Assembly: GCF_002584535.1 (NCBI RefSeq)
Contig: NZ_NUOT01000051.1
Coordinates: 57,324 to 121,323, forward strand
Length of the DNA: 64,000 nucleotides
Source: Bacillus cereus
GTDB taxonomy: Bacteria > Bacillota > Bacilli > Bacillales > Bacillaceae_G
Direction: 5' to 3'
Part shown: positions 35,661-55,527 of the stretch, piece after piece
How positions within the stretch are numbered: the first letter of the stretch is position 1
How the letters are laid out: each line of letters opens with the position of its first letter
Translations under genes and position numbers: made by a program
Notes under the pieces: generated by a model
The model's database searches: none
Seen by the model: only the letters and a program-made list of their open reading frames with translations
Told to the model about the DNA's origin: nothing

Positions 35661-35728
35661 TAATAAGTCCCCCTATGCATGTAAACTATTTTTGTTATTT
35701 ATTTTTCTTTCTTTACACCTTTTATTAT

Positions 35729-35745: not shown

Positions 35746-35791
35746 CTTTTCAAACTGCCTAAAATCAACATTCTCCTAAGTGTTTTTTATT

Positions 35792-35866: not shown

Positions 35867-36065
35867 TATCTGTATGAAAATAGATTAGTGTTTAGTTGTC
35901 TAGTCGTGTGGGAAAACAAAAAATAAAATATTTTTACAAATAAATTTTATATTGGCTTTTCACTTTGTAATAAACTAGTGTTTCATATTCCAAAAGAATA
36001 GATTGTCCAATCTAACTTCTATTTCTTTACATAAAATAAGATAAAACATTTTTTATACAAGAAGT

Positions 36066-36438: not shown

Positions 36439-36485
36439 TTCTTATTTTTATTCTTCTACTAAAAGGAGGTTACGCTACAATAACA

Positions 36486-36515
36486 GGACCATCAGTGATA
36501 ATCCACTGATGGTCC
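36486..36515. terminator. Perfect stem-loop after the speD remnant
   Basis: GGACCATCAGTG and CACTGATGGTCC form a 12-bp stem with a six-base loop. There is no T run on either strand, so termination is weak or absent. Confidence 0.5.
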
Positions 36516-36582
36516 ACACCCATCTATCATTCAAATATTGGCGATTCGAAAACCTACAATAAAGAATTAACCTCCTGTAAAC

Positions 36583-36999
36583 CTACTTCAATCCACTATT
36601 CAATCCCTCAATTTTTTTCTTCCAATACATTGTCATTGTAAACCAGATAATGAAGTAAATAACGATAAAGCTACCTATGCAAATCAGAATGGGAACAAGT
36701 TGACTTGGAACCCAACCAATCCAAATTGCAATCGGTAAGAATGTTCCTAGTAAAATGATAAAGTGAATCATCGTTTGCTTCAAAATGCTCCATTCTTCTC
36801 TCTCAAACACAAAGGAAGCAAACGAAAAGATCATCCCTACAATATTTGCTGTTACAAGGTGGGTAAGTAATGTCTTTGTCTCTAATACATCCATTCCATT
36901 TGCATAACCGATTCCTAAAAACAATAAGCTATACACCATCGCCATCGCCATTCCTGCAATCACTTTAGCGCCTATTCTATCAAACAATGTAATCATCAT
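36583..36999 (-). CDS. DUF3021 four-span membrane protein, partner of the LytTR regulator
   Basis: A 138-residue protein with four membrane spans: VIAGMAMAMVYSLLFLGIGY, the region around LLTHLVTANIVGMIFSF, MIHFIILLGTFLPIAIWIGW and the IYFIIWFTMTMYW end. It fits the DUF3021 family, which is commonly encoded next to LytTR-domain proteins. The gene begins six bases after the LytTR stop codon, and its ribosome site GGAGG lies within that gene, so they are coupled. By analogy with LytTR regulatory systems of streptococci it may hold the regulator inactive; that is inference. Confidence 0.85.
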   Translation of the reverse strand: MMITLFDRIGAKVIAGMAMAMVYSLLFLGIGYANGMDVLETKTLLTHLVTANIVGMIFSFASFVFEREEWSILKQTMIHFIILLGTFLPIAIWIGWVPSQLVPILICIGSFIVIYFIIWFTMTMYWKKKIEGLNSGLK

Positions 37000-37005
37000 A
37001 TATCT

Positions 37006-37455
37006 CTAACCTCCTCCTATATTCAATGCTTCTTTAATAAGCGGCACATATTTTCTTGAAACATACTCTTTCATTCCATTTGAAAAGTGTGCACACATAC
37101 TGCCACTAAAAGACATTTCAAAACTTGTTACATACTGCAAGTTAGCTAATGTAGACTTTGAGAATCTCACAAAGCGATCACCCTGTAATTTTGTTTCTAA
37201 CTCATACAAACGTGATTTCACTTCAAGACTTCCTTTCGTCGTTTGCGCCATTATCTTTCGACCCTCTGCATAAAACCAATAAATATCTTTCGGTTCTAAC
37301 AAATAATATTGCTGTTCCGAAATTCCAACAATTTGCTTCACACCTCCACCTTCTATCCTTTTTAAAAGATGCTGAACTTCGTCTGTTACTTCTTTTGTCT
37401 TTACAATAATCTCTATTTCATCTTGTGATGGATCTAATTCAAGGTGAATCTTCAC
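37006..37455 (-). CDS. LytTR-domain DNA-binding regulator (no receiver domain)
   Basis: A 149-residue protein. The first ~50 residues (VKIHLELDPSQDEIEIIVKT ... LLKRIEGGGV) precede a LytTR domain from about 55 (YYLLEPKDIYWFYAEGRKIMA ... FVRFSKSTLANLQYVTSFEM). It lacks a response-regulator receiver domain. The start is GTG 37455, preceded by GGAGGTGGAGGTA; the longer reading to 37593 would run through its own promoter and is rejected. It is cotranscribed with the DUF3021 gene. Phased direct repeats lie upstream. Confidence 0.88.
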   Translation of the reverse strand: MKIHLELDPSQDEIEIIVKTKEVTDEVQHLLKRIEGGGVKQIVGISEQQYYLLEPKDIYWFYAEGRKIMAQTTKGSLEVKSRLYELETKLQGDRFVRFSKSTLANLQYVTSFEMSFSGSMCAHFSNGMKEYVSRKYVPLIKEALNIGGG

Positions 37456-37517
37456 TACCTCCACCTCCCTTACACTTTTATTGTTACATATATTTGGAAA
37501 AAATAAATAGATTGCTA

Positions 37518-37546
37518 CATAAGTGGTATCACCCTCGACATAACTG
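37518..37546 (-). promoter_or_regulatory. Two-turn direct repeat upstream of the LytTR gene
   Basis: On the minus strand CAGTTATG and CACTTATG are 21 bases apart, the spacing reported for LytTR dimer sites. They lie about 63-91 bases before the GTG start and suggest autoregulation. Confidence 0.5.
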
Positions 37547-37566
37547 ACACTTTTTCGTACATAAAA

Positions 37567-37590
37567 AAAGACCTTGCATAAGCAAGGCCT
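37567..37590 (-). terminator. Terminator at the end of the orphan IIA gene
   Basis: CCTTGC, a TTAT loop, GCAAGG and then TCTTTTTTT on the minus strand. The stem begins in the stop codon. Confidence 0.82.
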
Positions 37591-37907
37591 CATTCTTTCG
37601 CTAACATTTTCTTATATAATCCTACAAATTCACTCGCTAATTCCTTCACCGTTATAGCATTCATTAAATGGTCTTGTGCATGAACCATGAGCAGGGTAAT
37701 CTCCGTCTTTCCCCCCGCAGCTTCCCTCTGTATCAAATCTGTTTGCAAACGATGCGCTTCTTGTAATTCTTGAAGCGCATCCTGTAGTTTAGCGTCCGCC
37801 TCTTCAAACTTTCCTCGCTTTGCATAATCAATCGCTTCCATCGCACTGCTTCTCGCATTTCCTCCATGTAAAATTAAATGAAAAGCTTGTGTCTCTAATG
37901 TATCCAT
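37590..37907 (-). CDS. Orphan PTS lactose/cellobiose-family IIA component
   Basis: A 105-residue IIA ([20 protein letters not shown] ... [23 protein letters not shown]) close in sequence to the operon IIA at 33377. The active His in HAQDHLM is kept. There is no IIB or IIC gene with it, and it has its own terminator. It may serve the cellobiose permease, another one elsewhere, or act as a regulator of a PRD protein. ATG 37907 has only a weak ribosome site (GGGGAGTAAAGAGAT). Confidence 0.9.
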
Positions 37908-38386
37908 TTTATCTCTTTACTCCCCTTTTTCTTACGCTACTTTTTGCTTATCCTACACTCTCAAAAATGGTAAATAAAGAATACCATCGTAGCCCCAAAA
38001 CTTTCTGCACAGATTCATAATTATCATATTTGTTATATCTTTCTTTGCTTGAAAAACGCTGCAGGTTTTAATCCATTCGTGATAATTAAATTGAACCCAT
38101 GACACCGCCCACCATGGCTCGTCATGAATTCCACATGGACAATAATGAATACTACTAATACATCCACTTTATGTTGTTTCTCAAACCTGTAAGCGATTCC
38201 AATAAAACCTATTAAAGACATTATATTAAATGTTGCACTAACTGGATACCCGAACACTTCCTTACAATTACCTCCAAATAAAATAACACTTTATTTGCCA
38301 CAAATTTGTTATAACTTTCACAAAGTTTCCACAGCGCTTTCTCTTCCTTCGTACTATAATCATGTATGGAAAAGGAGATGGAAACT
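37908..38386. other. Eroded intergenic stretch with possible gene fragments
   Basis: On the minus strand, two overlapping frames at 38260-37950 give protein-like runs, one of them reading CPCGIHDEPWWAVSWVQFNY near 38120. Neither has a ribosome site, and a frameshift or stop separates them. It could be a gene fossil of unknown family. A TATAAT at 38354 probably serves the acyltransferase gene. Confidence 0.35.
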
Positions 38387-39535
38387 ATGACACAAAACGC
38401 CCCGGAATTTAAAGTTTTGCAAAGCATAGCATTTCTTGCTGTTGTTTTGCAAAGTTCCTTACTATATACAATGAATCAAGGACATATTCTACTAGAACAA
38501 TCTCTTATTATGGGAATGCTATTTAATCTCGCAAAATTTTCAGCACCAGCATTCATCTTCATTGTTGGATTCCATTTAATTCGGCAATACACAAAACAAA
38601 TGGTTTATACAGAATACCTCTATGAAAAAACAACACACTTACTTGCTCCTTATTTCTTCTGGTCCGTCGTATACCTATTTACAACAAATCAAGTCGTTAC
38701 AGTGCAAAGCGGAATAAAAAGCCTATTTCTCGGAACAGCCGCACCCCATCTTTGGTACGTCATCATGATGTTCCAAATTCATTTGTTGTTCCCACTGCTA
38801 TGCGGATTGTTCTATTGGTTTCAAAAGCGAACACACAATCAGCAAGATATATACCGGTACATGGCCGTTTTCGCTAGCATGTATTTTCTCTTAATGTGGT
38901 ATTCTTCTCATTATATTTTTAACGGTGAAGTCTTAACTAGATCAACTGTTTTGCATTATACAGATCGATCCTTCTTCTTTTATTCATTTTACTTTGTCAT
39001 GGGAGGAATCGCAGCTGTAGCACTTCAAGCTTGGCGTTTATTTGTAATGAAACATATACCGCTCATAACAATCTTATTTTTTATTCTATTCTTATTCATT
39101 AACTATGAACTATTTAGCTTTTATGGTGTAGATTCCATTCACCTTACTGTATCTACCTATTTAAAGCCATCCATGTTTCTGTACATTGTATGTGAAATTT
39201 TAATATTATACGTACTATCTATCATGATTGTACAGCGACGAGGTTTGTTATATAAAACATTACGTTTTATCGGAAACTACACGTACGGGGCCTATTTAGC
39301 GCACTTTTTCTTTTTACAGCTAATTACGAAATTACTATCTCTATTTACATTACAAGCAAATACAATTCTATATAGTCTATCACTATTTCTTTTGACGGTA
39401 ACATTTTCTATCATCACAATGGTTATATGTAGCACGGTTCCATTCCATACATGGATTACAGGACCTTCTCCCACGCCTGTATTAAAATGGCCTACATTTA
39501 TACCTTTACTATCGTTAGTAAGAAGTAAAAAATAA
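38387..39535 (+). CDS. Membrane acyltransferase (acyltransferase 3 family)
   Basis: A 382-residue protein with about ten membrane spans. The early part (AFLAVVLQSSLLYTMNQGH ... SAPAFIFIVGFHLI) and the mid segment HLWYVIMMFQIHLLFPLL fit the acyltransferase 3 / IcaC-like family, which O-acetylates or succinylates surface polysaccharides. ATG 38387 follows AAAAGGAGATGG; two upstream ATGs, at 38366 and 38378, lie before or in that site. No sugar-polymer genes are adjacent, so its substrate is open. Confidence 0.85.
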   Translation: MTQNAPEFKVLQSIAFLAVVLQSSLLYTMNQGHILLEQSLIMGMLFNLAKFSAPAFIFIVGFHLIRQYTKQMVYTEYLYEKTTHLLAPYFFWSVVYLFTTNQVVTVQSGIKSLFLGTAAPHLWYVIMMFQIHLLFPLLCGLFYWFQKRTHNQQDIYRYMAVFASMYFLLMWYSSHYIFNGEVLTRSTVLHYTDRSFFFYSFYFVMGGIAAVALQAWRLFVMKHIPLITILFFILFLFINYELFSFYGVDSIHLTVSTYLKPSMFLYIVCEILILYVLSIMIVQRRGLLYKTLRFIGNYTYGAYLAHFFFLQLITKLLSLFTLQANTILYSLSLFLLTVTFSIITMVICSTVPFHTWITGPSPTPVLKWPTFIPLLSLVRSKK

Positions 39536-39573
39536 GAAGAAGCTGCCTCCGCAAAGAGGCAGCTTCTTCTTGT
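39536..39573 (+). terminator. Terminator after the acyltransferase gene
   Basis: GAAGAAGCTGCCTC pairs with GAGGCAGCTTCTTC around a six-base loop and ends in TTGTCC; the T run is short. Confidence 0.75.
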
Positions 39574-39650
39574 CCAGAAACCTGTTGATTTTTCTTTCTT
39601 CTAATATAACAAGGCCATCTACAATAACTGCAGGAGCCACTATCATCCTC

Positions 39651-40736
39651 TTACTTCTTATCCATTTTCAATTCCGTCTCAGCTAATAGCGGCAACACGT
39701 TATCAAAAATATGCGTGTTGTCCTCTTTCCCAACTACATATCCACCATAAAACCTGCTAAATACGTTGTCATTCCGAAATTCACTCATCCGATTGTATAA
39801 TTCCTTAGCAAACTTTATATCTCCCGTTTGCAACACATATAGAATGGTTAGCCCATATGCCGCTGGTGATTCAAAATCTACTACTGGTTTTCCTGTATCT
39901 AAATCATAACGACCGTATAGCTTTCCATCTTTATGGAATGCTTTTTTGATAAAATCTAAATAGGCTTCGGAAGCAATGCCGCCTAAACTCCGATGATAAG
40001 CAACATACGATTGATCAATCAGATTCACCTGTTTTTCATATGTGAACGTGCCATCTGCTTTATATTCTTTCGGGAATGCCCAGCCGCGCCTCGGATAATC
40101 CGCTAAAAATTGAATAACTCCTTGATATTGCGTTTCTGAAATTTTTCCGTACTTTTTCATATAAGAGAATGCACTTGGATTTATGTAGGATGTCGTTAAT
40201 ATATTGTGTTGCATCTCCTTATCCGCATCATAATAATCAACATAGATGTTTCCTCTCTTATTATAACGAAGTACAGCATCACTCACTTGATCCGCAAGAT
40301 GTTTATACCGCTCTTCTTTATACATTTCATAGGCACGATATAGCTGTTCGATAATGCGAAGATCATCAATGAGAGCGTTCGTAGCTGCTTGTCTTTCTCC
40401 TGTTTCAGAAATTTTCCATAAAACAATATGGACTGGATGTATAAAATAATTTTGGATAACCTTTACTTGTTCATCAAACAATGATTGATTGTCCATATCA
40501 AGTGTATATTGTAGCCATAGTCCTGCTGATTCTGATAATGCTTCACGACCGATTGCCTCGTCCGTTCCTTCCTCTGAATCAGCTATTCGATATGTTGCGA
40601 GCGTCCCATTCTCGTTTATCATATGTCTCAAAATAAAATATTCTGTTCGATTCCCTTGTAGTGCAGCCCAAAAAACAATCCCTCCTAAAACCATAAATAA
40701 AACTAACGCCACCCATATATACAAATGTTTCCGCAC
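39651..40736 (-). CDS. Membrane-anchored glycosidase-like protein (YdaJ-like, GH8-type fold)
   Basis: A 361-residue protein with an N-terminal anchor (YIWVALVLFMVLGGIVFWAAL) and an extracellular domain rich in aromatic and acidic helices (SAGLWLQYTLDMDN, VDYYDADKEMQHN, YPRRGWAFPKEY, DFESPAAYGLTILYVL), consistent with an alpha/alpha barrel glycosidase. In B. subtilis YdaJ is of this kind and is encoded with the c-di-GMP-controlled polymer genes ydaKLMN. Here ydaK- and ydaM-like genes lie 19 kb away at 59064-61108. The family call is from pattern only; catalytic residues are not assigned. Confidence 0.62.
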   Translation of the reverse strand: MRKHLYIWVALVLFMVLGGIVFWAALQGNRTEYFILRHMINENGTLATYRIADSEEGTDEAIGREALSESAGLWLQYTLDMDNQSLFDEQVKVIQNYFIHPVHIVLWKISETGERQAATNALIDDLRIIEQLYRAYEMYKEERYKHLADQVSDAVLRYNKRGNIYVDYYDADKEMQHNILTTSYINPSAFSYMKKYGKISETQYQGVIQFLADYPRRGWAFPKEYKADGTFTYEKQVNLIDQSYVAYHRSLGGIASEAYLDFIKKAFHKDGKLYGRYDLDTGKPVVDFESPAAYGLTILYVLQTGDIKFAKELYNRMSEFRNDNVFSRFYGGYVVGKEDNTHIFDNVLPLLAETELKMDKK

Positions 40737-40842
40737 GTTTTCTCACCTCTATAATAAGGCTAACCGTAATCTTGGCAGAACATACGGAAACATTTAAAAG
40801 ACAATCCTTTAGATTGCCCTTACTTTTTATTCTTTACATACG

Positions 40843-40986
40843 TTAGTTAGCCTCTTTCGCAGGACGATACAGTAATTGCACAAGGCGATCATATTCACGC
40901 CGTGTAATTTCTTTATTGTATAACTTTAATAATAAATCTTTATGCTCTTTCGAAAACGCCATTTTTCTAATGACTTCAGGATACAT
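40843..40986 (-). CDS. Small 47-residue protein of unknown function
   Basis: MYPEVIRKMAFSKEHKDLLL begins a soluble, highly charged, helical sequence that ends YRPAKEAN. ATG 40986 is nine bases after GGAGGGG, one of the strongest ribosome sites in the window, and the frame is free of rare features. It lies between the glycosidase-like gene and cydA, transcribed away from cydA. I do not recognise a family. Confidence 0.68.
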   Translation of the reverse strand: MYPEVIRKMAFSKEHKDLLLKLYNKEITRREYDRLVQLLYRPAKEAN

Positions 40987-41256
40987 ACAAGGATCCCCCT
41001 CCGTTTCACATGAACCTCTTCATTCTGTTGGTCTCAACCTCAGGAACAGAACTAACGTTCGTATAAGCATTATAAAAGATTTTGTTCTGAAATACAAATG
41101 CAATTACATTCCTTCCCTATTTTTTATCTTTTCTAAAGATTTCGAAATTATAATATCATACTCACTTTTTAAATACATATATATTTTTGGCAGTTTTTTG
41201 AATAAATTTTCCAGTTCAATCAGAAAATAATGGCAAAAATGAAGAGGAGTAGAGTT

Positions 41257-42612
41257 ATGGATACTGTTACATTGTCACGGGCTTTCTTTGGATCATCATT
41301 AGCATTCCACATTATTTTTGCAACTCTTGGAATCGGACTATCCTTAATGATTTTTATAAGCGAAATATTATATCACTGGAAGAGGGATTCAGATTATGCT
41401 GTTATGGCAAAAAGATGGACAAAAGCTTTTGCCATCCTTCTTGGTGTAGCAATTCCTACTGGAACAATTGTCGGTGTACAAATTTCACTTCTTTGGCCCG
41501 GTTTCGCCAAAATTGTCGGTCAAGTCATATCTGTTCCATTCCAGATTGAGATTTTCGCATTCTTCTTAGAAGCTTTATTTATGTCCATTTACGTATATGC
41601 AGCAGATAAATTACCACCATTCATGAGATTAATCTCACTCTTTTTTGTCATGCTTGGTGCCACGGCATCTGCCGTGTTAATTACTTCAGCAAACACATGG
41701 ATGAATACACCGGCAGGCTTTTCTATGAACCCTGATGGCTCTGTCTTTAACGTTGATCCGTGGAAGGCATTCTTTAATCCAAGCTTTTTCACAAGCTCCC
41801 TTCACGTGGTCATTACGGCTTACGCAACAGGTGCAGCAGTCATTGCTTCTATCGCTGGATTTAAATTATTAAAACGAAATATAAGCCCACGGGAAATTGC
41901 TTATCATAAAAAAGGACTATTTTTAGGCCTCGTCGTCACGTTTATTACAGGTGCAACAATGTGGCTTTCTGGACATGAATCAGCAATTGCCTTGCATGAA
42001 CATTCTCCGGAAAAATTAGCAGCGGCTGAAGCATTATTTCATACAACATCACATGCTCCTCTTGCAATTGGTGGTTTTGTTGATCCTGCAACACATGAGC
42101 TAAACTACGCCCTTGAAATCCCAAATATGCTAAGCATGTTAGTTGGATTTAATCCTAATACCGTTGTAAAGGGATTAAATGAATTTCCACAAGAAACGTG
42201 GCCACCATTTTATACGCATACGTTCTTTAATTTAATGGTCGGTACAGCTGCATTCACTTTTGCTGTAGCAGCAATCGCTCTTTTATATTGGTACTTTATC
42301 TATCGAAAAAAAGGGACAGAATTACCAAAGTGGCTTCTGTGGGCTACTGCTGCATGCGGACCGATTATGATGCTTGGCATTGAATTTGGATGGGTTTTCA
42401 GTTGTAGCGGCCGTCAGCCTTGGACGATTTATGGGATGCAGCGCACAATGGATGCTGCTACGCGGGCTGATTTCGTCGGGCCCTTATTTATTTTATTCAT
42501 CATCTTATATGTCGGTCTTGGCGCTTTAACGATTTTCGTACTACGAACGTTCTTTAGAAGACATCCATTAAAAAACGATCTAGGACAGCAAGGAGGAGAT
42601 CCTCGTGCATGA
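41257..42612 (+). CDS. cydA: Cytochrome bd oxidase subunit I
   Basis: A 451-residue polytopic subunit of the high-affinity quinol oxidase. The N-terminal LSRAFFGSSLAFHIIFATLG holds the haem b595 ligand His, and the Q-loop is short as in Firmicutes. GRQPWTIYGMQRT near the C-terminus is a family signature. ATG 41257 is preceded by GAGGAG. The stop codon overlaps the start of cydB. cydCD, which follow in B. subtilis, are not adjacent here. No clear Rex or Fnr site was found upstream. Confidence 0.96.
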   Translation: MDTVTLSRAFFGSSLAFHIIFATLGIGLSLMIFISEILYHWKRDSDYAVMAKRWTKAFAILLGVAIPTGTIVGVQISLLWPGFAKIVGQVISVPFQIEIFAFFLEALFMSIYVYAADKLPPFMRLISLFFVMLGATASAVLITSANTWMNTPAGFSMNPDGSVFNVDPWKAFFNPSFFTSSLHVVITAYATGAAVIASIAGFKLLKRNISPREIAYHKKGLFLGLVVTFITGATMWLSGHESAIALHEHSPEKLAAAEALFHTTSHAPLAIGGFVDPATHELNYALEIPNMLSMLVGFNPNTVVKGLNEFPQETWPPFYTHTFFNLMVGTAAFTFAVAAIALLYWYFIYRKKGTELPKWLLWATAACGPIMMLGIEFGWVFSCSGRQPWTIYGMQRTMDAATRADFVGPLFILFIILYVGLGALTIFVLRTFFRRHPLKNDLGQQGGDPRA

Positions 42613-43630
42613 GGAAAGTATTGCGATTATCATCTTATGGGCCATTATCTTCGTATACAGTATTTTAGGTTCCATTGATTTTGGGGCTGGATTTTGGGGC
42701 ATGGTATACGCGAAGCACCCGACGCTAGCCGGAAAGCTTGCCAATCGTTATCTATCACCAACATGGGAAGTCACGAATACATTTCTTGTCTTTGTCGTTG
42801 TCGCATTTCTTGGCTTCTTTCCGAAAGCAGCTTTTACACTCGCAACAGTCATGTTCGTTCCTGTAACATTAATTTTAGTTCTCGTTGCTATTCGTAGTAC
42901 CTTTATGGTGTTTGCTTACTCTGTACCAAAATATGAACACGTCCTGCGCCTCATTTCTGGTATTACTGGGCTCTTAATTCCTGCCTTATTAATTACAGTT
43001 TTGCCAGTAACAGAAGGTGCCTATATTACAACCTCTGGTGGAAAAGAAGTTTTATTATATGGGAAACTTCTATCAAGCCCTGTAATCTATTGGTATATGT
43101 TGTTCGGATTAACTTCTGAGCTATTCTTATCCTCTCTGTTTCTAGCTGATTTTGCGAGAGAACAGCGCTCAGAAGATACATATCGAATTTACAGACGTAA
43201 TGCCATCATACTCGGCCCAGCAACACTCGTTACTGCCATCATCGCCCTTGTTGTTATGGACCCAGAAACCCATTGGCTCATGCAAGGATTAATTAAACAG
43301 TTTCCGTGGTTCACAGTCTCCATTATTTTATTTGTAATCGGGTATTCTTCCCTTTGGTGGACAAACAAAAAACACGGTTCACTTGGCTGGCCTCGCATCG
43401 CTGTGTTAGCAGTTGTTGCACAATATGCATTTGCAAGTTACGCTTATGGCGTTGCACATTTACCGTATATTATCTATCCGGACGTTACCGTATTTACAAG
43501 CTTTACAACGAAAGAAACATTCTATGCGCTGCTCATCCTCTATGCAATTGGCATCGCGATCTTACTTCCGGGCTTTATTTTCTTCTGGAATTTATTCTTA
43601 AAAGATCGAACATTCCTCAAAGAAAAATAG
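42605..43630 (+). CDS. cydB: Cytochrome bd oxidase subunit II
   Basis: A 341-residue membrane subunit with eight or nine spans that pairs with CydA. LWAIIFVYSILGSIDFGAGFW is the conserved first block and NRYLSPTWEVTNTFLVF the second. The start is GTG 42605, eight bases inside cydA's end, with AGGAGGAGA upstream; this gives tight translational coupling. A long terminator follows. Confidence 0.96.
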   Translation: MHEESIAIIILWAIIFVYSILGSIDFGAGFWGMVYAKHPTLAGKLANRYLSPTWEVTNTFLVFVVVAFLGFFPKAAFTLATVMFVPVTLILVLVAIRSTFMVFAYSVPKYEHVLRLISGITGLLIPALLITVLPVTEGAYITTSGGKEVLLYGKLLSSPVIYWYMLFGLTSELFLSSLFLADFAREQRSEDTYRIYRRNAIILGPATLVTAIIALVVMDPETHWLMQGLIKQFPWFTVSIILFVIGYSSLWWTNKKHGSLGWPRIAVLAVVAQYAFASYAYGVAHLPYIIYPDVTVFTSFTTKETFYALLILYAIGIAILLPGFIFFWNLFLKDRTFLKEK

Positions 43631-43636
43631 CAATTA

Positions 43637-43700
43637 AAAAAGAAGCTACTCCAAACATTTACTGAAAATAGAGATGTTTGGAGACCAGCTTCTTTTTTTA
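43637..43700 (+). terminator. Long terminator after cydAB
   Basis: AAAGAAGCT, CTCCAAACAT, then ATGTTTGGAG and AGCTTCTTTTTTT form a two-part stem with a T run. Confidence 0.85.
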
Positions 43701-43711
43701 TGATCATAAAA

Positions 43712-43800
43712 AAGTGACCTACTCTTTGTTTTAAACTGGGCATGGGGTTAAACCGCTTCTATGCTTGAGCAGATGCTCTCTCTCCCACTTTAAAATGGTT
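43712..43800 (+). repeat. Interspersed repeat family C, copy 2
   Basis: CTACTCTTTGTTTTAAACTG, AACCGCTTCTATGCTTGAGC and ATGCTCTCTCTCCCACTT are shared with 51725 and, inverted, with 23140. The rest of this 390-base gap before the transporter gene is AT-rich and empty. Confidence 0.7.
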
Positions 43801-44023
43801 CTATATTATTTGTTCATTTTTTATTTATGCAGGCACTTCTCTCTATCAAAAAGCACTAGTTATCTCTCTCGTATCTATATTTGCCTTTTAACATCAAATA
43901 CACATATTCACTAGATTCAGATACATACCTAGTTCTACTTGTCTTTCTTTGAATATACTACTGTATAAACTTGAGACAAGCTTACATCTATTTGTTCAAG
44001 TAAAAAAGAAAGGTAGGCTAACA

Positions 44024-45382
44024 ATGAGTACAGAAATATTGGTTACTATCGTCGTCTTCTTCTTAACCATGATTATCATCTTTTGGCGACCACGTGGATT
44101 GAATGAAGCATGGCCCGCTGCAATTGGCGCCGGTATCATTCTCCTTACAGGGCTTGTATCAAAACCGGACGTCATGGATATTATTAGTAAAATAGGAGGC
44201 GCCTCCATAACGATCTTAGCAACCATTGTTATGGCGGTTATACTAGAAAGCTTCGGCTTTTTCCATTGGTCGGCTGCAAAACTGGCAAACTTAGCAAAAG
44301 GTTCCGGCCGCCGTTTATACTGGTACATTCAATTATTATGCTTCCTCATGACACTTCTATTTAACAATGATGGCAGTATCTTAATTACGACTCCAATTCT
44401 AATTTTACTTCTTAAAAACCTTCGATTAAAACCACATGAGCAAATCCCATATTTACTAAGCGGTGCTTTAATTGCTACTGCTTCAAGTGCACCAATTGGT
44501 GTAAGTAATATCGTAAACTTAATCGCATTAAATATCGTAAACATGACACTTTATATGCACACTGCAATGATGTTTGTTCCGGCAACGCTAGGATTACTAT
44601 TTATGTCATGGCTCATGTACACTGTGTTAAAGAAAAAATTACCAGAAAGATTACCTGTTTCCTCTTATGATATTGAAGAAATTTTCTTCACAAAAAACTT
44701 TCATCCTCTAAAAGGGAGAAATCCCGTAGATACAAAACAAAAACGGACAAAATTCATGTTAAAAGTATTACTTTTCGTATTCCTTATGCGCTGTCTTCTC
44801 TTCGTCGCTTCCTTCCTATCCATACCGATTGAAATTGTAGCTGTACTGGGTTCATGCATTCTTCTTGTGTGGAGATGGTACTATTTACGTACAAATCCTG
44901 TCGATATCTTAAAAAAGACACCTTGGCATATCCTAATCTTCGCTTTCTCTATGTATGTTATCATCTACGGCTTGCACAATGCAGGATTAACAGAGTTGCT
45001 GGTAAAATGGTGCGAACCCATTGTAAACCAACATCTTCTTTATGCGAGCTTTACAATGGGCGGATTGGTTTCTATCCTCTCTAACATCTTTAACAATCAC
45101 CCTGCTCTCATGATTGGTACCATTACATTAACTGAGATGGGACTTGATCCAGTCACTCTAAAAACAATCTATCTTGCAAACATTATTGGTAGTGACATGG
45201 GATCATTATTATTACCAATCGGTACACTTGCTTCCCTCATTTGGATGTACATCCTAAGACAAAATAAAATTAAAGTGAAATGGAAAGATTATTTAAGCGT
45301 ATCACTTATTGTCATTCCGCTCTCAACAATCGTAACATTATTCCTCTTATTCTACTGGGTACAACTTTTCTTCTCCCTCTAA
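44024..45382 (+). CDS. ArsB/NhaD-type ion transporter superfamily permease
   Basis: A 452-residue protein with about eleven spans of the ion-transporter superfamily (arsenite pump, NhaD, citrate-type carriers). FLTMIIIFWRPRGLNEAWPA and LLFNNDGSILITTPILILLL are the first conserved blocks and NIFNNHPALMIGTITL, with GSDMGSLLLPIGTLASLIW, the second-half match. ATG 44024 follows AGAAAGGTAGG; the earlier ATG at 43949 has no site. No arsR or arsC is nearby, so arsenite is not the assured substrate; di-/tricarboxylate or sodium is possible. Confidence 0.85.
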   Translation: MSTEILVTIVVFFLTMIIIFWRPRGLNEAWPAAIGAGIILLTGLVSKPDVMDIISKIGGASITILATIVMAVILESFGFFHWSAAKLANLAKGSGRRLYWYIQLLCFLMTLLFNNDGSILITTPILILLLKNLRLKPHEQIPYLLSGALIATASSAPIGVSNIVNLIALNIVNMTLYMHTAMMFVPATLGLLFMSWLMYTVLKKKLPERLPVSSYDIEEIFFTKNFHPLKGRNPVDTKQKRTKFMLKVLLFVFLMRCLLFVASFLSIPIEIVAVLGSCILLVWRWYYLRTNPVDILKKTPWHILIFAFSMYVIIYGLHNAGLTELLVKWCEPIVNQHLLYASFTMGGLVSILSNIFNNHPALMIGTITLTEMGLDPVTLKTIYLANIIGSDMGSLLLPIGTLASLIWMYILRQNKIKVKWKDYLSVSLIVIPLSTIVTLFLLFYWVQLFFSL

Positions 45383-45390
45383 AAAATAAT

Positions 45391-45431
45391 AGCCTCCTTT
45401 GCTACCGTCTTAGCAAAAGAGGCTTCTTCTA
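45391..45431 (+). terminator. Terminator after the ArsB/NhaD-like gene
   Basis: GCCTCCTTTGCTA pairs with TAGCAAAAGAGGC and is followed by TTCTTCT. Confidence 0.75.
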
Positions 45432-45533
45432 TATTTAAATTAGGTACACGTGATCAATCAAGTAAAAAGGTGCTCGGAAATCATACATATCTCCCGCTAT
45501 CCGCGGGCACTCTTAGCCTCATCTCAAATTCAA

Positions 45534-47321
<1,788 letters not shown>

Positions 47322-47414
47322 TCAGGCAAATCTAACTTGCACCGAATCTTGAGCCAATTTCTGTGCAACTCGATTCTCACTTCAGCGACGTTTCGCCGCT
47401 TTCGCTTTACTTAA

Positions 47415-47531
47415 GATCCAGCTTGAGTGGCTAGAATGATCGTTGGCTTCGTTTCTTCAACTGAGGTAAAACACACCTCTTCGGCTGAAGCTCCATCCCC
47501 CTCCCATTCTGAACGAGCCGCTTTCGCCTTA
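47415..47531 (+). repeat. Interspersed palindromic repeat, family A copy in the thiC leader
   Basis: GATCCAGCTTGAGTGGCTAG to CATTCTGAACGAGCCGCTTT, clearly related to the copies at 1760 and 1881. It lies between the riboswitch terminator and the thiC ribosome site, so it is transcribed as part of the leader. Confidence 0.78.
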
Positions 47532-47570
47532 CTTGTGACAAGGACAAGAACTAGTGGCCAGCGCATGCCA

Positions 47571-47614
47571 AAATAAAAAGAGCCAGGTCCATAGTAAAAC
47601 AAGGACCTGGCTCA
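47571..47614 (-). terminator. Riboswitch-controlled terminator of thiC
   Basis: GAGCCAGGTCC and GGACCTGGCTC form a perfect stem with a 12-base loop and a U-rich tail on the minus strand. The first arm can also pair with the conserved GGACCTG and GGCTC of the riboswitch, giving a plausible antiterminator. Confidence 0.88.
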
Positions 47615-47634
47615 TAAAGACATAGTTATGTAAA

Positions 47635-47738
47635 GCCGTTAACTTCCCTACGCTGGTACGAGCCAGATCAGGTCCAAAGGGTTAAGAAGTTATCGCGCTT
47701 CTCTCTCAGCCTAAGCATTACTTAGGCACCCCTAGTTT
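47635..47738 (-). ncRNA. TPP riboswitch (THI element)
   Basis: On the minus strand the conserved blocks occur in order: CTAGGGGTGCC, GCTGAGAGAG, CCTTTGGACCTGATCTGG and CGTACCAGCGTAGGGAAG. It binds thiamine pyrophosphate and turns off thiC. Confidence 0.97.
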
Positions 47739-47847
47739 ATCACTGATTTAATTTTCAATACTTTCCCATCATACACGATAATCAGAAAAATGCAAAGGCA
47801 TGAGTTGCAATTTTTATCTATCGTTTTTTTGTCTGCCAATCGATATA

Positions 47848-47960
47848 CCTGATAGAACCAATGATTATTAGCCCTCACCAATCGGGTTCTTATGGGCAGT
47901 TGATCTATCACCTAGCTTCTTTGTTTCCACTAAATTTTGAGGTGGGAGCCAAAACTTATT
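47848..47960 (+). repeat. Interspersed repeat family B, copy 2
   Basis: ATGATTATTAGCCCTCACCA, then CAGTTGATC, CACCTAGCTTCTTTGTTTCC and GAGGTGGGAGCC. It lies 110 bases upstream of the thiC riboswitch. Confidence 0.7.
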
Positions 47961-48179
47961 CATGTTCAAATAAAATCATACCATCCGTCTACAATTAATA
48001 GAGATTTCTACTTATTACACGGATTATAATACGGTTTCGTGTTATAATTTTCTAAAAATTACTATTTTTATATATTTTATTTATAAGAACAATTCAGTTA
48101 AAGTCAAAACACATAAAAAATTAGTCATATTATTTATGCACATATATCAAGTATAGTTTAGATCAGGAGTGAAATTATA

Positions 48180-48482
48180 ATGGGGTGTTTTGGGTCTATC
48201 TTCAGGTTTATATTTTGCGCAATATGTATTATTTTTGTCTTTTGGTTTGGAGGCACGTCAATTATGGCCTTTTTTTCTGCTCTGTTTGGGGGCAGTTGGA
48301 TGCGCTTCTGGACATTATTTTCTATCTGGGTTGTTGCCAATTACGGAATCGGTTGGCTGTTTGAAGTTCACTGGAAAGATGAGGACGCGGGCGACGAATT
48401 CTTTTTAAATTTTATTCTTTTTATCAGCATACTTATTTATAGGGGAGTTAATAAACTTGGGAGAGTGTTTATCCGAGGATGA
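48180..48482 (+). CDS. Small membrane protein of unknown function
   Basis: A 100-residue protein with three likely spans: SIFRFIFCAICIIFVFWFGG, the region around FWTLFSIWVVANYGIGWLF, and NFILFISILIYRG. A short acidic loop (HWKDEDAGDE) separates the last two. ATG 48180 is eight bases after AGGAGTGA. A second ORF in another frame over the same bases is weaker. No family recognised; its terminator is shared with lctP from the other side. Confidence 0.72.
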   Translation: MGCFGSIFRFIFCAICIIFVFWFGGTSIMAFFSALFGGSWMRFWTLFSIWVVANYGIGWLFEVHWKDEDAGDEFFLNFILFISILIYRGVNKLGRVFIRG

Positions 48483-48517
48483 ATAGTCTCTCAGCGTAAC
48501 CATTTAGTTAAGATTAT

Positions 48518-48553
48518 GAAACAAGCCAGGTGCTTTCAGCACCTGGCTTGTTT
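48518..48553. terminator. Bidirectional terminator between convergent genes
   Basis: ACAAGCCAGGTGCT and its perfect complement enclose a three-base loop. Confidence 0.82.
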
Positions 48554-48587
48554 GTGTTAAGTTGACGGCTTATACCCACCTAAAAGC

Positions 48588-50249
48588 TTACGGTATCATC
48601 CACGTTAAATAGTAGGCTTGTACATATGTCATAATCCCAACAATCACTACAAAGAATAGACTATGTTTTACTGTAAAGCGGAATAAATCAGATTCTTTTC
48701 CAGCAAGTCCTACTGCTGCACACGCGATTGCAATCGATTGCGGAGAAATCATTTTACCCGTTACACCACCTGTTGTATTTGCCGCAACAAGCAGTACTTC
48801 TTTTACACCAACTTGCTGCGCTGTAATCGCTTGTAAGTTGGAGAATAGTGCATTTGCTGATGTATCTGATCCTGTTAAGAATACACCTAGCCAACCAAGG
48901 AATGGTGAGAAGAACGGGAATAATCCACCTGTTCCCGCTAACGCTAACGCAAGTGTTGACGATAAACCAGAATAGTTTGCGATGAATGCGAATCCTAATA
49001 CTAAACCGATAGATAGAATCGGCATCTTTAATTCTTGTAATGTTTCTGCAAATGTTTCTACAGCCTGTTTTGCACTCATTTTTAGTACAAGGATAGAAAT
49101 AATACATGCAATTAAAATCGCTGTTCCTGTTGCTGACAAGATATCAAGCTTTAATATCGCCTCATAGGGTGTTGGTTTATTTACAATTGGCTCTGCTTTC
49201 ATTACTAAATTGTGCAGACCTGGAATTTGGAACTTAAAGACAAGACTTTCTAATGCCCCACCTGGAGCAAATAATGCTTTGAAGAAACTTTGACTCCAAA
49301 TAACTACCATCACTGTCAAAATAATAAATGGTGACCAAGCTTTTACAACTTTTCCTGCTGTTAATTTCGGCATAGATGCAACTGTCATTGCTGCTGCCAC
49401 TTCATTATTTTCTTGATTAGATTGATAGATTTCTTTCGGCTGCCATACTTTTAGGAATAACGATAAACATATTAAACTCACAAGCGCTGATGTAATATCC
49501 GGAAGTTCTGGCCCTAAAAACGTTGCTGTAATAAATTGTGTAATTGCAAATGAACTACCTGCTACAAATAACGCAGGCCATGTTTGTTTTATACCTTTGA
49601 AGCCATCCATTAAAAATACGATAAAGAATGGAACAAATAGTGATAAGAATGGTAATTGGTGCCCAGCCATTTGGCCGATTTTGTGAGGATCAATACCCGT
49701 TACTTGCCCCGCAACTGTAATCGGAATCCCCATTGCTCCAAACGCTACTGGTGCTGTATTGGCAATTAAGCACAGTCCAGCTGCATATAGCGGATTTAAA
49801 CCAAGACCAGCAAGAAGTGCTGCCGTAATTGCTACCGGTGCGCCAAATCCTGCTGCCCCTTCTAAAAATGCACCAAATGAAAAACCAATTAAAATAACAA
49901 GTAAACGATGATCATTTGTAATCGATAGTACGGATGCACGGATGATATCAAATTGTCCTGTTTTTACTGAAATTTTATATAAAAATACCGACATTACAAT
50001 AATCCATGCAATTGGCCATAATCCATATAAAAATCCATATCCGGTTGCAGCCATCGCCATTGTAAACGGCATTTTATACGCAAATAGCGCAACTAGAATT
50101 GTCAATACAACCGTAATAAATCCTGCCACATAACCCTTCATACGAAAAACTGCTAAAGCCAAGAAAAAAAAGATAATTGGAATAAGTGCTACCGCTGCAG
50201 AAATCCAAATGTTACCGAACGGATCGTAAACTTGTGTCCATGTGCCCAT
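48588..50249 (-). CDS. lctP: L-lactate permease
   Basis: A 553-residue LctP-family carrier with about 13 spans that imports lactate with protons. [20 protein letters not shown] is the family hallmark near residue 125, and [16 protein letters not shown] with [16 protein letters not shown] lie near the end. ATG 50249 follows GGGGAGAGG. Upstream are two overlapping cre-like sites and two copies of a 20-base palindrome, so the gene is probably under catabolite and specific control. Confidence 0.95.
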
Positions 50250-52199: not shown

Positions 52200-54128
52200 A
52201 TGAAGGAATCTTTAAAGTCACAATTTCTTAATGTGCGCTTTACTTTGTTCGTTGCTTTGGCTGTATGGCTAAAAACTTACATCATAACGCGTACAAGTTT
52301 TGATTTGAAACTTGAATCTTTCATGCAAGAATTTATCTTATTCATTAGTCCATTAGCAGCATCATTACTGCTTGTGGGTCTTGCATTATTCGCAAAAGGA
52401 AAGAAACGTAATTATATAGCACTTGGAATTGATTTTATTTTAACAATCGTTCTTGTTGGTAACGTAATGTTCTACGGGTTCTACAATGACTTCGTTACTT
52501 TACCGGTACTTGGGCAAACATCCAACTTCGGACAGCTCGGTTCTAGTGTGAAAGAACTATTTAATTACAAAATCATCGTTGCATTTGCTGATATTATCAT
52601 CTTCTCTGTTCTATTAAAGAAAAAGAAGAACTTTGCAAGAACTGAGCGCGTATCACGTCCAATGCGTTCTTTATACTTCGTATCAACGATCGCTGTTTTC
52701 TTTGCAAACTTAGGTCTTGCAGAAACTGAGCGTCCAGAACTATTAACACGTTCATTTGACCGCGTTATGCTTGTAAAAAACTTAGGTTTATATACTCACC
52801 AATTATACGATCTTGGCTTACAAGCAAAATCAAGTTCACAAAAGGCATTTGCTGATGGTAGCAAATTACAAGAAGCAGAAAACTATGTGAAAACAAACAA
52901 AACGAAACCGGATCCAAATATGTTTGGTGCTGCGAAAGGGAAAAACGTAATCGTCGTTTCTCTTGAATCCTTGCAAACATTCTTAATTGGTGCACAAGTA
53001 AATGGTCAAGAAGTTACACCATTCTTAAACCAATTTGCAAAGGAAAGTTATTACTTCGATAACTTCTTCCATCAAACTGGACAAGGGAAAACATCGGATG
53101 CTGAATTCTTAGTAGATACATCTCTATATCCGTTAGACCGCGGTGCTGTATTCTTTACACATGGTAATAACGAATATACTGCAACACCAGAAATTCTGCG
53201 TCAGCAAGGGTATTACACAGCTGTATTCCACGCAAACAACGCAACATTCTGGAACCGTAACATCATGTATCCTGCACTTGGTTACGATCGTTACTATAAT
53301 GAGCTTGACTACAAAATCACACCAGAAACAAAGTTAAACTGGGGATTAAAAGATATCGAGTATTTTGATCAATCAGTGGATATGTTAAAACAAGTGAAGA
53401 AGCCATTCTATACTCGCTTCCTTAGTTTAACCAACCACTATCCATTTACGTATGACGATAGCACAAAATTAATCGAACCTTACAACTCTGGTGACGGAGT
53501 GTTTGACCGTTACATGGTAACAGCTCGTTACTTGGATGAAGCACTGAAAAACTTTATTGAACGCCTAAAAGCAGAAGGGCTATATGATAACTCTGTTATC
53601 GTCTTCTACGGTGACCATTACGGTATTTCTGAAAACCATAACCGCGCAATGGCACAATTCTTAGGCAAAGAAGAAATTACAACATTTGATCATATGAACT
53701 TACAACGTACACCGATGTACATTCATGTTCCAGGTCAAAAAGAAGGTAAAACAATTTCAAAACCAACAGGTGAAATTGATATTAAACCAACAATTCTAAA
53801 CTTACTTGGTGTTGATTCAAGCAATGACATTAGCTTTGGTCATGATGTATTCTCACCAGATTATAAATCATTCGTTGTTCTTCGCGATGGAAGCTTTATA
53901 ACAGAAAAATATATGTACACAAACAATACATTCTATGATCGCATGACAGGCGAAGTTGTAGAAGTACCAAAAGAAGAAGCTCAAGCAATGATTGATCGTG
54001 CACAAAATGAACTGCGCATGTCTGATAAACTCATTGAGGGCGACCTACTCCGCTTCTCTGAAAGTAACAAAATTAAAACAGGCGAAGTAAAAACGGCTAT
54101 TAAAGAAGACAAAAAAGACGCTGAGTAA
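52200..54128 (+). CDS. ltaS: Lipoteichoic acid synthase family protein
   Basis: A 642-residue LtaS-type enzyme. Five N-terminal spans (about 10-190) are followed by an extracellular sulfatase-fold domain. VIVVSLESLQTFLIG holds the first metal Glu, GQGKTSDAEF the nucleophile Thr, and VIVFYGDHYGI further metal ligands. It transfers glycerol phosphate from phosphatidylglycerol to the growing polymer. ATG 52200 follows AAAGGGTGG. B. cereus-group genomes hold several paralogues; the size suggests a main synthase but I cannot say which. It has its own terminator. Confidence 0.93.
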   Translation: MKESLKSQFLNVRFTLFVALAVWLKTYIITRTSFDLKLESFMQEFILFISPLAASLLLVGLALFAKGKKRNYIALGIDFILTIVLVGNVMFYGFYNDFVTLPVLGQTSNFGQLGSSVKELFNYKIIVAFADIIIFSVLLKKKKNFARTERVSRPMRSLYFVSTIAVFFANLGLAETERPELLTRSFDRVMLVKNLGLYTHQLYDLGLQAKSSSQKAFADGSKLQEAENYVKTNKTKPDPNMFGAAKGKNVIVVSLESLQTFLIGAQVNGQEVTPFLNQFAKESYYFDNFFHQTGQGKTSDAEFLVDTSLYPLDRGAVFFTHGNNEYTATPEILRQQGYYTAVFHANNATFWNRNIMYPALGYDRYYNELDYKITPETKLNWGLKDIEYFDQSVDMLKQVKKPFYTRFLSLTNHYPFTYDDSTKLIEPYNSGDGVFDRYMVTARYLDEALKNFIERLKAEGLYDNSVIVFYGDHYGISENHNRAMAQFLGKEEITTFDHMNLQRTPMYIHVPGQKEGKTISKPTGEIDIKPTILNLLGVDSSNDISFGHDVFSPDYKSFVVLRDGSFITEKYMYTNNTFYDRMTGEVVEVPKEEAQAMIDRAQNELRMSDKLIEGDLLRFSESNKIKTGEVKTAIKEDKKDAE

Positions 54129-54144
54129 TCTCAGCGTCTTTTTT
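54111..54144 (+). terminator. Terminator embracing the ltaS stop codon
   Basis: AAAAAAGACGCTGAG and CTCAGCGTCTTTTTT pair with the TAA stop in the four-base loop. Confidence 0.93.
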
Positions 54145-54222
54145 CTACATTTGTATGATAAAATTACACAATCTTCACCAAATATTTACATAAAATTCAT
54201 AATACATCTCTATAATAAAACT

Positions 54223-54466
54223 TGTAAACAATGTTCTGCCTATCCCCCGCCTATCATTTCACAGCTTTGTGAAAAGTCCCCTTGAGGGAGTAACAGAATC
54301 ATTTGTGTAACAATGCCTTTGGTGTTACTTTGAAGTAACACTCATTGTCTTAGTAAAGCCGATCGATCGGTTTACCATTTACCTTTCTAGGCTATGCCAA
54401 GACAATATCCCTATGAAATGAGCTACCCTCCTTATGCGACATTCTATATGAATGTCGCTTTTTTTA
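54223..54466 (+). ncRNA. Candidate structured RNA with intrinsic terminator (unassigned)
   Basis: A 245-base region with no ORF starts after TATAAT at 54211 and ends in a clean terminator (GCGACATTC, GAATGTCGC, then eight T). Hairpins between: TTTCACA/TTGTGAAA, GTGTTACTT/AAGTAACAC, GTAAAGCCGAT/ATCGGTTTAC. CATTGTCTT near 54343 can pair either with the upstream ACAATG or with the downstream AAGACAAT, a switch-like choice. GAGGGAGTAAC and a distal GCTACCCTC could close the fold. I do not recognise the class; it may be a leader or a free small RNA. The gene dat begins 189 bases later. Confidence 0.6.
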
Positions 54467-54654
54467 TTTCTAAAAAGCAGGATTCTTATTTCTCATTTAC
54501 GAATTGATATATGCGAAATGCATTAAGGTGGAAATTCTATCATTTTTTCATCTTCCGCTAATGGAATATCCTCACCAATCGTTTTATTACAACTATCACC
54601 TACAAACGATTCACCACTCATCATTCAAACAATTAAGAAAGGATGGGAAGTAAA

Positions 54655-55527
54655 ATGGCGTACGAAAGATTTGTATTATGGAATGATCAAATTATTGATA
54701 CAAATAAAACAGAGCCGTACATACAATTAGAAGAACGCGGCTTACAATTTGGAGATGGGGTCTATGAAGTAATTCGTATTTACAAAGGAAACATTCATTT
54801 ATTAGACCCACATTTAACAAGATTATACCGTTCAATGGATGAAATAGAATTAACATTACCTTTCTCTAAAGCAGAACTTATTACCTTGCTTTACAAATTA
54901 CTTGAAAATAATACATTCCAAGAAGATGGTACGATCTACTTACAAGTTTCTCGAGGAGTACAACATCGTGTACACACATTTTCTTTTGATGTAACCCCAA
55001 CAATCTATGCTTATATCTCCAAAAAAGAACGACCCGCTTTATGGATTGAATATGGAGTACGTGCTATCTCAGAACCTGATACACGTTGGCTCCGCTGTGA
55101 CATTAAATCCTTAAATTTATTGCCAAATATACTGGCTGCCACAAAAGCAGAACGTAAAGGGTGTAAAGAAGCCCTTCTCGTGCGTAATGGAATTGTTACA
55201 GAGGGTAGTTGCTCGAATTTTTTCCTAGTAAAAAAAGGGATTCTTTATACACACCCTGCCAACCATTTAATCTTAAACGGGATTGTCCGCCAATACATTC
55301 TCTCTTTAGCAAACAAACTACAACTTCCTGTACAAGAAGGACTATTCAGCATTCGTGATGTCTATAATGCTGACGAATGCTTCTTCACAGGAACAACTGT
55401 AGAAGTTTTGCCTATGACGCATCTTGATGGAACTGCTATCCAAGATGGCCAAGTTGGACGAATTACCAAATTACTACAAAAAACATTTATGCAGAGCTTT
55501 TCAACTTCTAACATCTCATTACCTTAA
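54655..55527 (+). CDS. dat: D-amino-acid aminotransferase (fold-type IV PLP enzyme)
   Basis: A 290-residue branched-chain/D-amino-acid transaminase. LEERGLQFGDGVYEVIRIYKG is the N-terminal family motif, LRCDIKSLNLLPNILAATKA holds the PLP Lys, and EGSCSNFFLV and FFTGTTVEVLPM contact phosphate and substrate. It makes D-Glu and D-Ala interconvertible for wall peptides. ATG 54655 is chosen over 54643, whose ribosome site would touch the codon. It lies downstream of the structured RNA candidate and its terminator; a promoter of its own is likely. Confidence 0.9.
   Translation: MAYERFVLWNDQIIDTNKTEPYIQLEERGLQFGDGVYEVIRIYKGNIHLLDPHLTRLYRSMDEIELTLPFSKAELITLLYKLLENNTFQEDGTIYLQVSRGVQHRVHTFSFDVTPTIYAYISKKERPALWIEYGVRAISEPDTRWLRCDIKSLNLLPNILAATKAERKGCKEALLVRNGIVTEGSCSNFFLVKKGILYTHPANHLILNGIVRQYILSLANKLQLPVQEGLFSIRDVYNADECFFTGTTVEVLPMTHLDGTAIQDGQVGRITKLLQKTFMQSFSTSNISLP

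What the first reader, a model, noticed from the sequence alone, without database searches (positions are those of the whole stretch)
54211..54466. Unassigned structured RNA ending in a terminator, between ltaS and dat
The 245 bases carry three strong hairpins, a promoter-like TATAAT at the start and a clean terminator at the end, with no ORF. CATTGTCTT at about 54343 has two mutually exclusive partners, ACAATG upstream and AAGACAAT downstream, which is how switches work. Some pieces (GGGAGTA near the 5' side, GCCAAGAC and GCTACCCTCC near the 3' side) loosely recall the manganese-sensing yybP-ykoY class, but the diagnostic core is not clear to me and no metal-transport gene follows. It may be an RNA regulating the aminotransferase or a free small RNA.
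Basis: partly seen in the sequence, partly recalled or inferred. Interest (0 to 1): 0.75.

Follow-up and report, generated by a model that had tools for sequence, protein, structure and literature searches.

The report
Uncatalogued small RNA with anti-ribosome-site loop
Between two cell-wall genes of a Bacillus lies what looks like a separate small RNA gene, matching no catalogued RNA family tested, whose conserved part is a short C-rich loop that could block the start sites of messenger RNAs.

Summary
Window 54225-54468 folds far better than shuffles (z -5.4), ends in a good terminator, has no credible ORF and matches no Rfam family. The interpretation needs changing. The two alternative pairings exist, but one is favoured by 3.8 kcal/mol and neither touches the terminator, so this is not a terminator switch.

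By synteny I found a matching unit upstream of dat in two Ectobacillus-like genomes (2 of the 5 with ltaS near dat). What survives there is a -10 box and RNA start, plus ACCCTC(C/T)TTATG before a terminator. In all three RNAs the CCCUC core, complementary to Shine-Dalgarno sites, sits in a predicted hairpin loop. A promoter-like element lies before dat in 6 of 6 loci, so dat probably has its own promoter.

Best reading: an independent small RNA acting in trans on ribosome-binding sites, like RoxS/RsaE but not a member of that family. Transcription and targets are untested; B. cereus-group chromosomes appear not to be held, so covariation could not be measured.

The parts
52200..54128 (+). ltaS-like lipoteichoic acid synthase gene, upstream neighbour (context)
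   Evidence: NCBIfam LtaS model E 2.7e-229 (762.9 bits, below its curated cut-off of 970); Pfam Sulfatase
54111..54144 (.). terminator after ltaS, symmetrical; separates ltaS transcription from the RNA
   Evidence: 15-pair stem reported on the minus strand; a T-run also follows on the plus strand
54211..54216 (+). TATAAT, likely -10 box of the RNA gene; TATACT in G005 and G001, followed there by AAAC(T/C)TGT
   Evidence: not part of a two-hexamer match; promoter piece alone weak against shuffles (window vs G005 50 of 500, vs G001 166 of 500)
54224..54467 (+). predicted small RNA, about 244 nt (start inferred from the -10 box, end from the U-run)
54228..54306 (+). 5' domain ACAATGTTCTG...CAGAATCATTTGT; not in the two relatives
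54321..54342 (+). hairpin GGTGTTACTT/AAGTAACACT; not in the two relatives
54344..54406 (+). long hairpin ATTGTCTT...AAGACAAT, with the competing partner ACAATG at 54310-54315
54425..54436 (+). ACCCTCCTTATG, the most conserved element; contains the complement of Shine-Dalgarno AAGGAGG; CCCTC predicted in a hairpin loop (arms 54418-54422 and 54431-54435)
54436..54465 (+). intrinsic terminator GCGACATTC-TATAT-GAATGTCGC-TTTTTTT
54477..54504 (+). GCAGGATTC-N12-TACGAAT, promoter-like element of dat (resembles sigma-H; that consensus is recalled); counterparts in the five relatives have nAAT one base nearer
54655..55527 (+). dat, D-amino-acid transaminase, downstream neighbour (context)
   Evidence: NF009066 E 2.1e-181; Aminotran_4

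Best explanation
This is an independent small RNA gene. It is transcribed from its own -10 box at 54211 and ended by its own terminator at 54436-54465. The functional core is compact: a short 5' end plus a C-rich ACCCUC(C/U)UUAUG element shown in a hairpin loop just before the terminator. The loop is complementary to Shine-Dalgarno sequences, so the RNA most likely binds ribosome-binding sites of other mRNAs in trans and represses their translation. The three big hairpins between 5' end and seed are a lineage-specific addition that the RNA tolerates; they may stabilise it or tune seed exposure. Shown: the fold, the terminator, recurrence of the C-rich element and terminator in two relatives, loop position by prediction, no Rfam match. 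Inferred: transcription, start point, trans action, targets, repression.
For: Fold z -5.4 and terminator. Same arrangement before dat in G005 and G001. Window 54391-54470 vs G005 (repeat taken out): 0 of 500 shuffles as good; vs G001: 14 of 500; G001 vs G005 over -10 box and 5' end: 0 of 500. G005's middle is a dispersed repeat with sharp ends, 35 other near-full copies among 46 matches, so the RNA without it is about 77 nt. P(CCCTC in hairpin loop) is 0.59 window, 1.00 G005 empty site, 0.78 G001, against means of 0.15, 0.14 and 0.10 with flanks shuffled (9, 0 and 5 of 100 as good). The linker pairs better with the 51 window gene starts (mean -11.7 kcal/mol) than shuffled linkers (0 of 50 as strong) or than with coding control stretches (-8.2). 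Promoter-like element before dat, 6 of 6 loci. Precedent: RoxS/RsaE C-rich regions that can pair with Shine-Dalgarno sites (PMC4409812, passages).
Against: No expression data seen. No canonical -35, and promoter-like sites in the region are no more than chance. The window's promoter piece resembles the relatives only weakly (50 and 166 of 500 shuffles). In the whole-gap comparison the best window-G001 alignment lies over the terminator tail and the dat element, not over the C-rich element. In G005 a piece just upstream of the -10 box (query 17-49) also recurs beside other repeat copies (4 rows), so part of that promoter region may be repeat-derived. Only three sequences, with 5' arms too different to align, so no covariation could be counted. 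Three of the five linked genomes lack the RNA at this place. Any C-rich stretch matches ribosome sites, so the pairing result is partly built in. In the window the hairpin-loop presentation is only mildly better than chance (9 of 100; 20 of 100 for the 3' part alone).
Confidence: 0.55

Rival explanations
1. A cis-acting leader of dat: transcription from 54211 reads through the terminator under some condition and the RNA controls dat by attenuation or by covering its ribosome site.
For: In all three cases the RNA lies directly upstream of dat on the same strand, even where another gene separates it from ltaS (G001). dat's ribosome site AAAGGATGGG can pair with the linker (-13.9 kcal/mol).
Against: Neither of the two foldings opens the terminator. 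dat has a promoter-like element in 6 of 6 loci, after the terminator where the RNA is present. dat ranks 12 of 51 for pairing. G002, G004 and G006 keep dat without the RNA.
Confidence: 0.17
2. The hairpins are a mobile or interspersed repeat of the B. cereus group (such as one of bcr1-bcr18) that landed in an ordinary intergenic region or small RNA gene; its structure is a property of the repeat, not of a regulator.
For: In G005 the middle of the corresponding unit is such a repeat. The window middle has palindromes and its two edges resemble each other (ACAATGTTCTGCCTAT and ACAATATCCCTAT, read by eye). The bcr families are described for this group, and 84 of 165 and 62 of 155 copies in two strains were part of a transcript (PMC3446304, passages).
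Against: No second copy in the 64-kb window; in plasmids no match at E 1e-5 and three weak ones at E 2 or more; none in viral contigs for the 54321 hairpin pattern. It does not explain the C-rich element and terminator shared with relatives. The bcr sequences themselves could not be compared here.
Confidence: 0.18
3. A riboswitch or other known structured RNA class missed by Rfam thresholds, for example yybP-ykoY.
For: Three hairpins, alternative pairing, terminator.
Against: yybP-ykoY is not among the 23 matches at E<=10 for 54000-54700, and all 23 are below their gathering scores. No shared multi-stem core in relatives.
Confidence: 0.04
4. A tiny ORF or dual-function RNA: AUG AUG Uyy CUA at the 5' end (5 codons in G001, 13 codons from AUG UUC in the window) is translated.
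For: GATGATGTYCCTA is shared by G001 and G005.
Against: No Shine-Dalgarno site seen, lengths and codons differ, start codon a few bases from the predicted 5' end (by eye).
Confidence: 0.04

Closest known systems
RoxS / RsaE small RNA family of Firmicutes
   Same: Non-coding, with C-rich regions that can pair with Shine-Dalgarno sites to block translation (PMC4409812, passages).
   Different: No Rfam match to it at E<=10; one clearly conserved C-rich loop here, against four numbered C-rich regions in RoxS.
Interspersed repeats bcr1-bcr18 of the B. cereus group
   Same: Intergenic elements of the same bacteria, some transcribed or with conserved secondary structure (PMC3446304, passages).
   Different: Single copy in the window; carries a -10 box, a C-rich element shared with another genus and a terminator. 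Direct sequence comparison was not possible.
XrrA/XrrB small RNAs of B. anthracis
   Same: Trans-acting small RNAs in this bacterial group (PMC7843513, abstract and passages).
   Different: Those are encoded on plasmid pXO1; sequences were not compared.
yybP-ykoY manganese riboswitch
   Different: No covariance-model match, the gene that follows is dat and not a metal transporter, relatives lack the stems.

Membership tests
yybP-ykoY riboswitch | Match to the Rfam covariance model | tested here: not met
   none at gathering or at E<=10
Transcription-terminating riboswitch (any class) | Alternative fold that removes the terminator stem | tested here: not met
   terminator present in the MFE and in both forced upstream folds
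Transcription-terminating riboswitch (any class) | Conserved ligand-binding core across relatives | tested here: not met
   only 5' end and C-rich element with terminator shared, three sequences
RoxS/RsaE family | Match to the family's covariance model (its presence in Rfam is recalled) | tested here: not met
   no such row at E<=10; relatives, no such row at E<=1
RoxS/RsaE family | C-rich unpaired motif complementary to Shine-Dalgarno | tested here: met
   (prediction only)
Trans-acting small RNA (general kind) | Own promoter and terminator, no ORF | tested here: inconclusive
   terminator strong, no credible ORF, promoter only a -10 box
Trans-acting small RNA (general kind) | Transcribed and pairs with target mRNAs in vivo | not testable with these tools
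   no expression or interaction data
bcr interspersed repeats | Several copies per B. cereus-group genome | tested here: inconclusive
   one copy in 64 kb, none convincing in plasmids; chromosomes of the group not found in the collections

The most novel reading that the evidence does not exclude
The gene is an insertion-tolerant small-RNA chassis: a conserved 5' end and a C-rich seed plus terminator, between which different lineages have independently accepted a structured element (a 198-bp dispersed repeat in one relative, roughly 155-170 bp of hairpins in the window). In the window the insert has been domesticated into a folding domain whose two competing helices set how fast or how fully the seed is exposed.
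Probability: 0.12. Interest if true: 0.65.

Novelty: new member of a known kind. Interest (0 to 1): 0.38.

Why it matters
If transcribed, it adds a likely regulator of translation next to two cell-wall genes in what appears to be a Bacillus cereus-group genome. One survey predicted 860 unique small RNAs in B. cereus ATCC 14579 (PMC6704327, whole text); this candidate has a core shared with another genus. The relatives point to which twelve bases to test, and suggest that the conspicuous hairpins are not the essential part, which would mislead a structure-first study. The G005 case, where a dispersed repeat sits between 5' end and seed, offers a test of how small RNAs survive or exploit insertions.

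Tried and rejected
Rfam at gathering and permissive thresholds, window and relatives: nothing relevant. The best-scoring rows lie over the ltaS terminator, mostly on the minus strand, not on this RNA.

Direct homology searches with the gap, parts of it, or dat: plasmids, phages, viral contigs, 3 and 19 genomes: no convincing homologue. One search's only hit (1 of 19) is 35 nt over the terminator; one search gave three hits at E 2-8.

Dat in genome contigs: none. LtaS in genome contigs: 27 loci, best 78% (Ectobacillus funiculus); no B. cereus-group title, so I take that group to be absent there. A megablast of window 30000-50000 against plasmids also named no B. cereus-group record.

Pattern for CCTA plus the C-rich element in 19 genomes: G001, and G009 inside what reads by eye as a protease gene. 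Pattern for the 5' end in 397 order genomes: only G001 itself (G005 is not among the handles listed, so it was not tested there). C-rich element plus nearby T-run in 19 genomes: the G005 locus (three overlapping rows) and four other hits (G001 C60, G007, G008, G015) that I judged from the matched letters alone not to be hairpin-terminators; two reversed-control hits; G001's own RNA is not caught because its T-run is further off. G001 RNA in 19 genomes: itself and G005.

Dat as a target: rank 12 of 51. One search was a first version with the anti-Shine-Dalgarno string in the wrong direction for choosing start codons (dat ranked 13 of 51); one search replaces it.

The three-way gap alignment was made with the G005 repeat still in place and is partly misaligned; not used for counts. 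No covariance model was built: the 5' arms of the seed hairpin do not align.

Literature searches for this locus, for B. cereus-group small RNAs or for the bcr repeats: no listed title or abstract describes this locus. Supplements could not be opened, so tables of predicted or mapped transcripts (PMC6704327, whole text read; PMC3446304, passages; PMC2863060, passages) may contain it unnamed. The sigma-H consensus was sought and not found; it is recalled.

Full report
What is there. Window 54129-54654 separates an ltaS-like gene from dat, a D-amino-acid transaminase. The ltaS unit ends in its own terminator at 54111-54144. Then follow a TATAAT at 54211, about 244 bases with strong hairpins, and a second terminator at 54436-54465. 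The fold is far stronger than chance (-66.1 vs -42.7 +/- 4.3 kcal/mol, z -5.39, 0 of 200 shuffles). Over the whole window the only Rfam match at gathering score is a TPP riboswitch at 47628-47743; over 54000-54700 none of the 23 matches at E<=10 reaches its gathering score. The promoter scan does not use the TATAAT; its one plus-strand site nearby (TTCACC-N18-CATAAT, 54174-54203) and its total of 2 sites are no more than chance (3.1 expected).

The switch idea. CATTGTCTT (54343) can pair with ACAATG at 54310 (forced fold -62.7) or with AAGACAAT at 54399 (-66.5, the MFE, ensemble probability 0.93). Transcripts cut at 54352, 54370 or 54395 use the first, those cut at 54410 or later the second. 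So there is a transient helix that refolds during synthesis. But the terminator stem is intact in every full-length fold, so this is not how a termination switch works.

Finding relatives. No whole genome is held for the window, and the collections appear to hold no B. cereus-group chromosome: dat found nothing in genome contigs, and the best LtaS there is 78% identical, in Ectobacillus funiculus. In the 19 genomes held for that family, ltaS and dat lie close together in five (G001, G002, G004, G005, G006). I read the gap in all five. G002 has about 140 bases between the matched ends of the two genes. G004 and G006 have an opposite-strand gene (by eye an aldo/keto reductase, not tested) and no such RNA. 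G005 and, beyond the same opposite-strand gene, G001 have a unit with the window's layout: TATACT, AAAC(T/C)TGTCTAGATGATGT(C/T)CCTA, a middle, ACCCTC(C/T)TTATG, a hairpin and a T-run.

Is the resemblance real? With 500 dinucleotide shuffles each, and G005 taken without its repeat: whole gaps, window vs G005 35 (1 of 500 as good, over the C-rich element, terminator and dat element), window vs G001 36 (0 of 500, but over the terminator tail and dat element), G005 vs G001 56 (0 of 500, over the -10 box and 5' end). Pieces: the window's 54391-54470 against G005 scores 27 (0 of 500), over TACCCTCCTTATG and ACATTC; against G001 23 (14 of 500). The window's promoter piece alone is weak (50 of 500 against G005, 166 of 500 against G001). 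So the C-rich element with terminator is the firm link; the promoter is consistent but not proven.

The middle is an insert in G005. Searching G005's RNA in the family gave 46 matches in G005: the locus itself, 35 nearly full copies of query positions 82-279 (189-208 bases, 90-97%), and 10 shorter pieces. Only 36 of 397 candidates were scored, so the copy number is a lower bound. I fetched 20 of these places with flanks. The left end TATATAAG is kept in 19 of 20 and the right end TATATA in 20 of 20; most flanks are unrelated, but one copy (L113) abuts another, and in four rows a piece upstream of G005's -10 box (query 17-49) recurs beside a copy, so part of that upstream region is itself repetitive. 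Joining the flanks gives an empty site of 77 nt from the inferred start to the T-run, close to G001's 90 nt. I could not show that they are a repeat: no second copy in the window and none convincing in plasmids.

The C-rich loop. In all three RNAs CCCUC is in a hairpin loop of the MFE, with arms that differ in sequence: AUGAG/CUUAU (window), GUGCUAUA/UGUAGCAC (G005), GCAUGAA/UUUAUGC (G001). Probability of CCCUC in a hairpin loop: 0.59, 1.00 (empty site), 0.78; with the motif kept and flanks shuffled the means are 0.15, 0.14, 0.10, and 9, 0 and 5 of 100 shuffles do as well. For G005 with its insert the value is 0.99 (2 of 100), and for the window's 3' part alone 0.52 (20 of 100). ACCCUCCUUAUG contains the complement of AAGGAGG. 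The linker pairs with 51 window gene starts (ORFs of 100 aa or more, starts chosen by script) better than 50 shuffled versions do (mean -11.7 vs -9.8, 0 of 50) and better than with coding control stretches (-8.2). This is what an anti-Shine-Dalgarno seed would show, and it is partly expected from base composition. The strongest pairing in the window is a CHRD-domain protein gene at 30087-30512 (-19.8), a lead only.

Relation to dat. Before dat, all six sequences examined (window, G001, G002, G004, G005, G006) have (G)(A/C)AGGA(T/G)T(T/C); 12 bases later come TACGAAT (window), GCTAATG (G005), CCTAATT (G001), TCTAATG (G006), TCTAATG (G004) and GCCAATT (G002). So AAT follows at one fixed distance in five and one base further in the window. 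The window's form occurs once on each strand of the 64 kb; the five-genome form does not occur in the window. The pattern was chosen after seeing the sequences. It resembles a sigma-H promoter (RnAGGAwww-N11-12-RnnGAAT, recalled), with GAAT only in the window and TAAT or CAAT elsewhere. It is present also where the RNA is absent. So dat most likely has its own promoter and the RNA is a separate unit, though in all three cases next to dat.

Mechanism and rank. Most likely an independent trans-acting small RNA using its C-rich loop against ribosome sites, as described for RoxS/RsaE (PMC4409812, passages), but not a member of that family by covariance model. Rivals: a dat leader, a structured interspersed repeat, a known riboswitch, a tiny ORF. 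None is excluded by experiment.

Verdict. Observation confirmed, interpretation partly supported. A plausible new small RNA of a known kind, with the added point that its visible structure is the least conserved part of it. Interest 0.38.

Noticed in passing
L079 (G005) and L105-L124: A 198-bp dispersed repeat with ends TATATAAG...CATTTATATA, 35 other near-full copies at 90-97% identity (lower bound) in one Ectobacillus-like genome; nothing near an Rfam gathering score in the two copies scanned (L079, L105). Looks like a miniature mobile element.
   Followed up: partly
window 54477-54504: Promoter-like element upstream of dat in 6 of 6 loci, resembling sigma-H (consensus recalled); would suggest that D-amino-acid transaminase is expressed around the start of sporulation or in stationary phase.
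   Followed up: partly
window 47628-47743 (minus strand): TPP riboswitch at 78.5 bits; window 45666-46835 nearby matches thiC records at about 77%, so it looks ordinary.
   Followed up: no
L080, L081, L082: An opposite-strand gene, by eye an aldo/keto reductase, sits between ltaS and dat in three of five Ectobacillus-like genomes; the RNA persists beside it in one and is absent in two.
   Followed up: partly
window 30087-30512 (minus strand): CHRD-domain protein gene whose ribosome site TATAAGGAGAATG gives the strongest predicted pairing (-19.8 kcal/mol) with the C-rich linker among 51 window genes.
   Followed up: no
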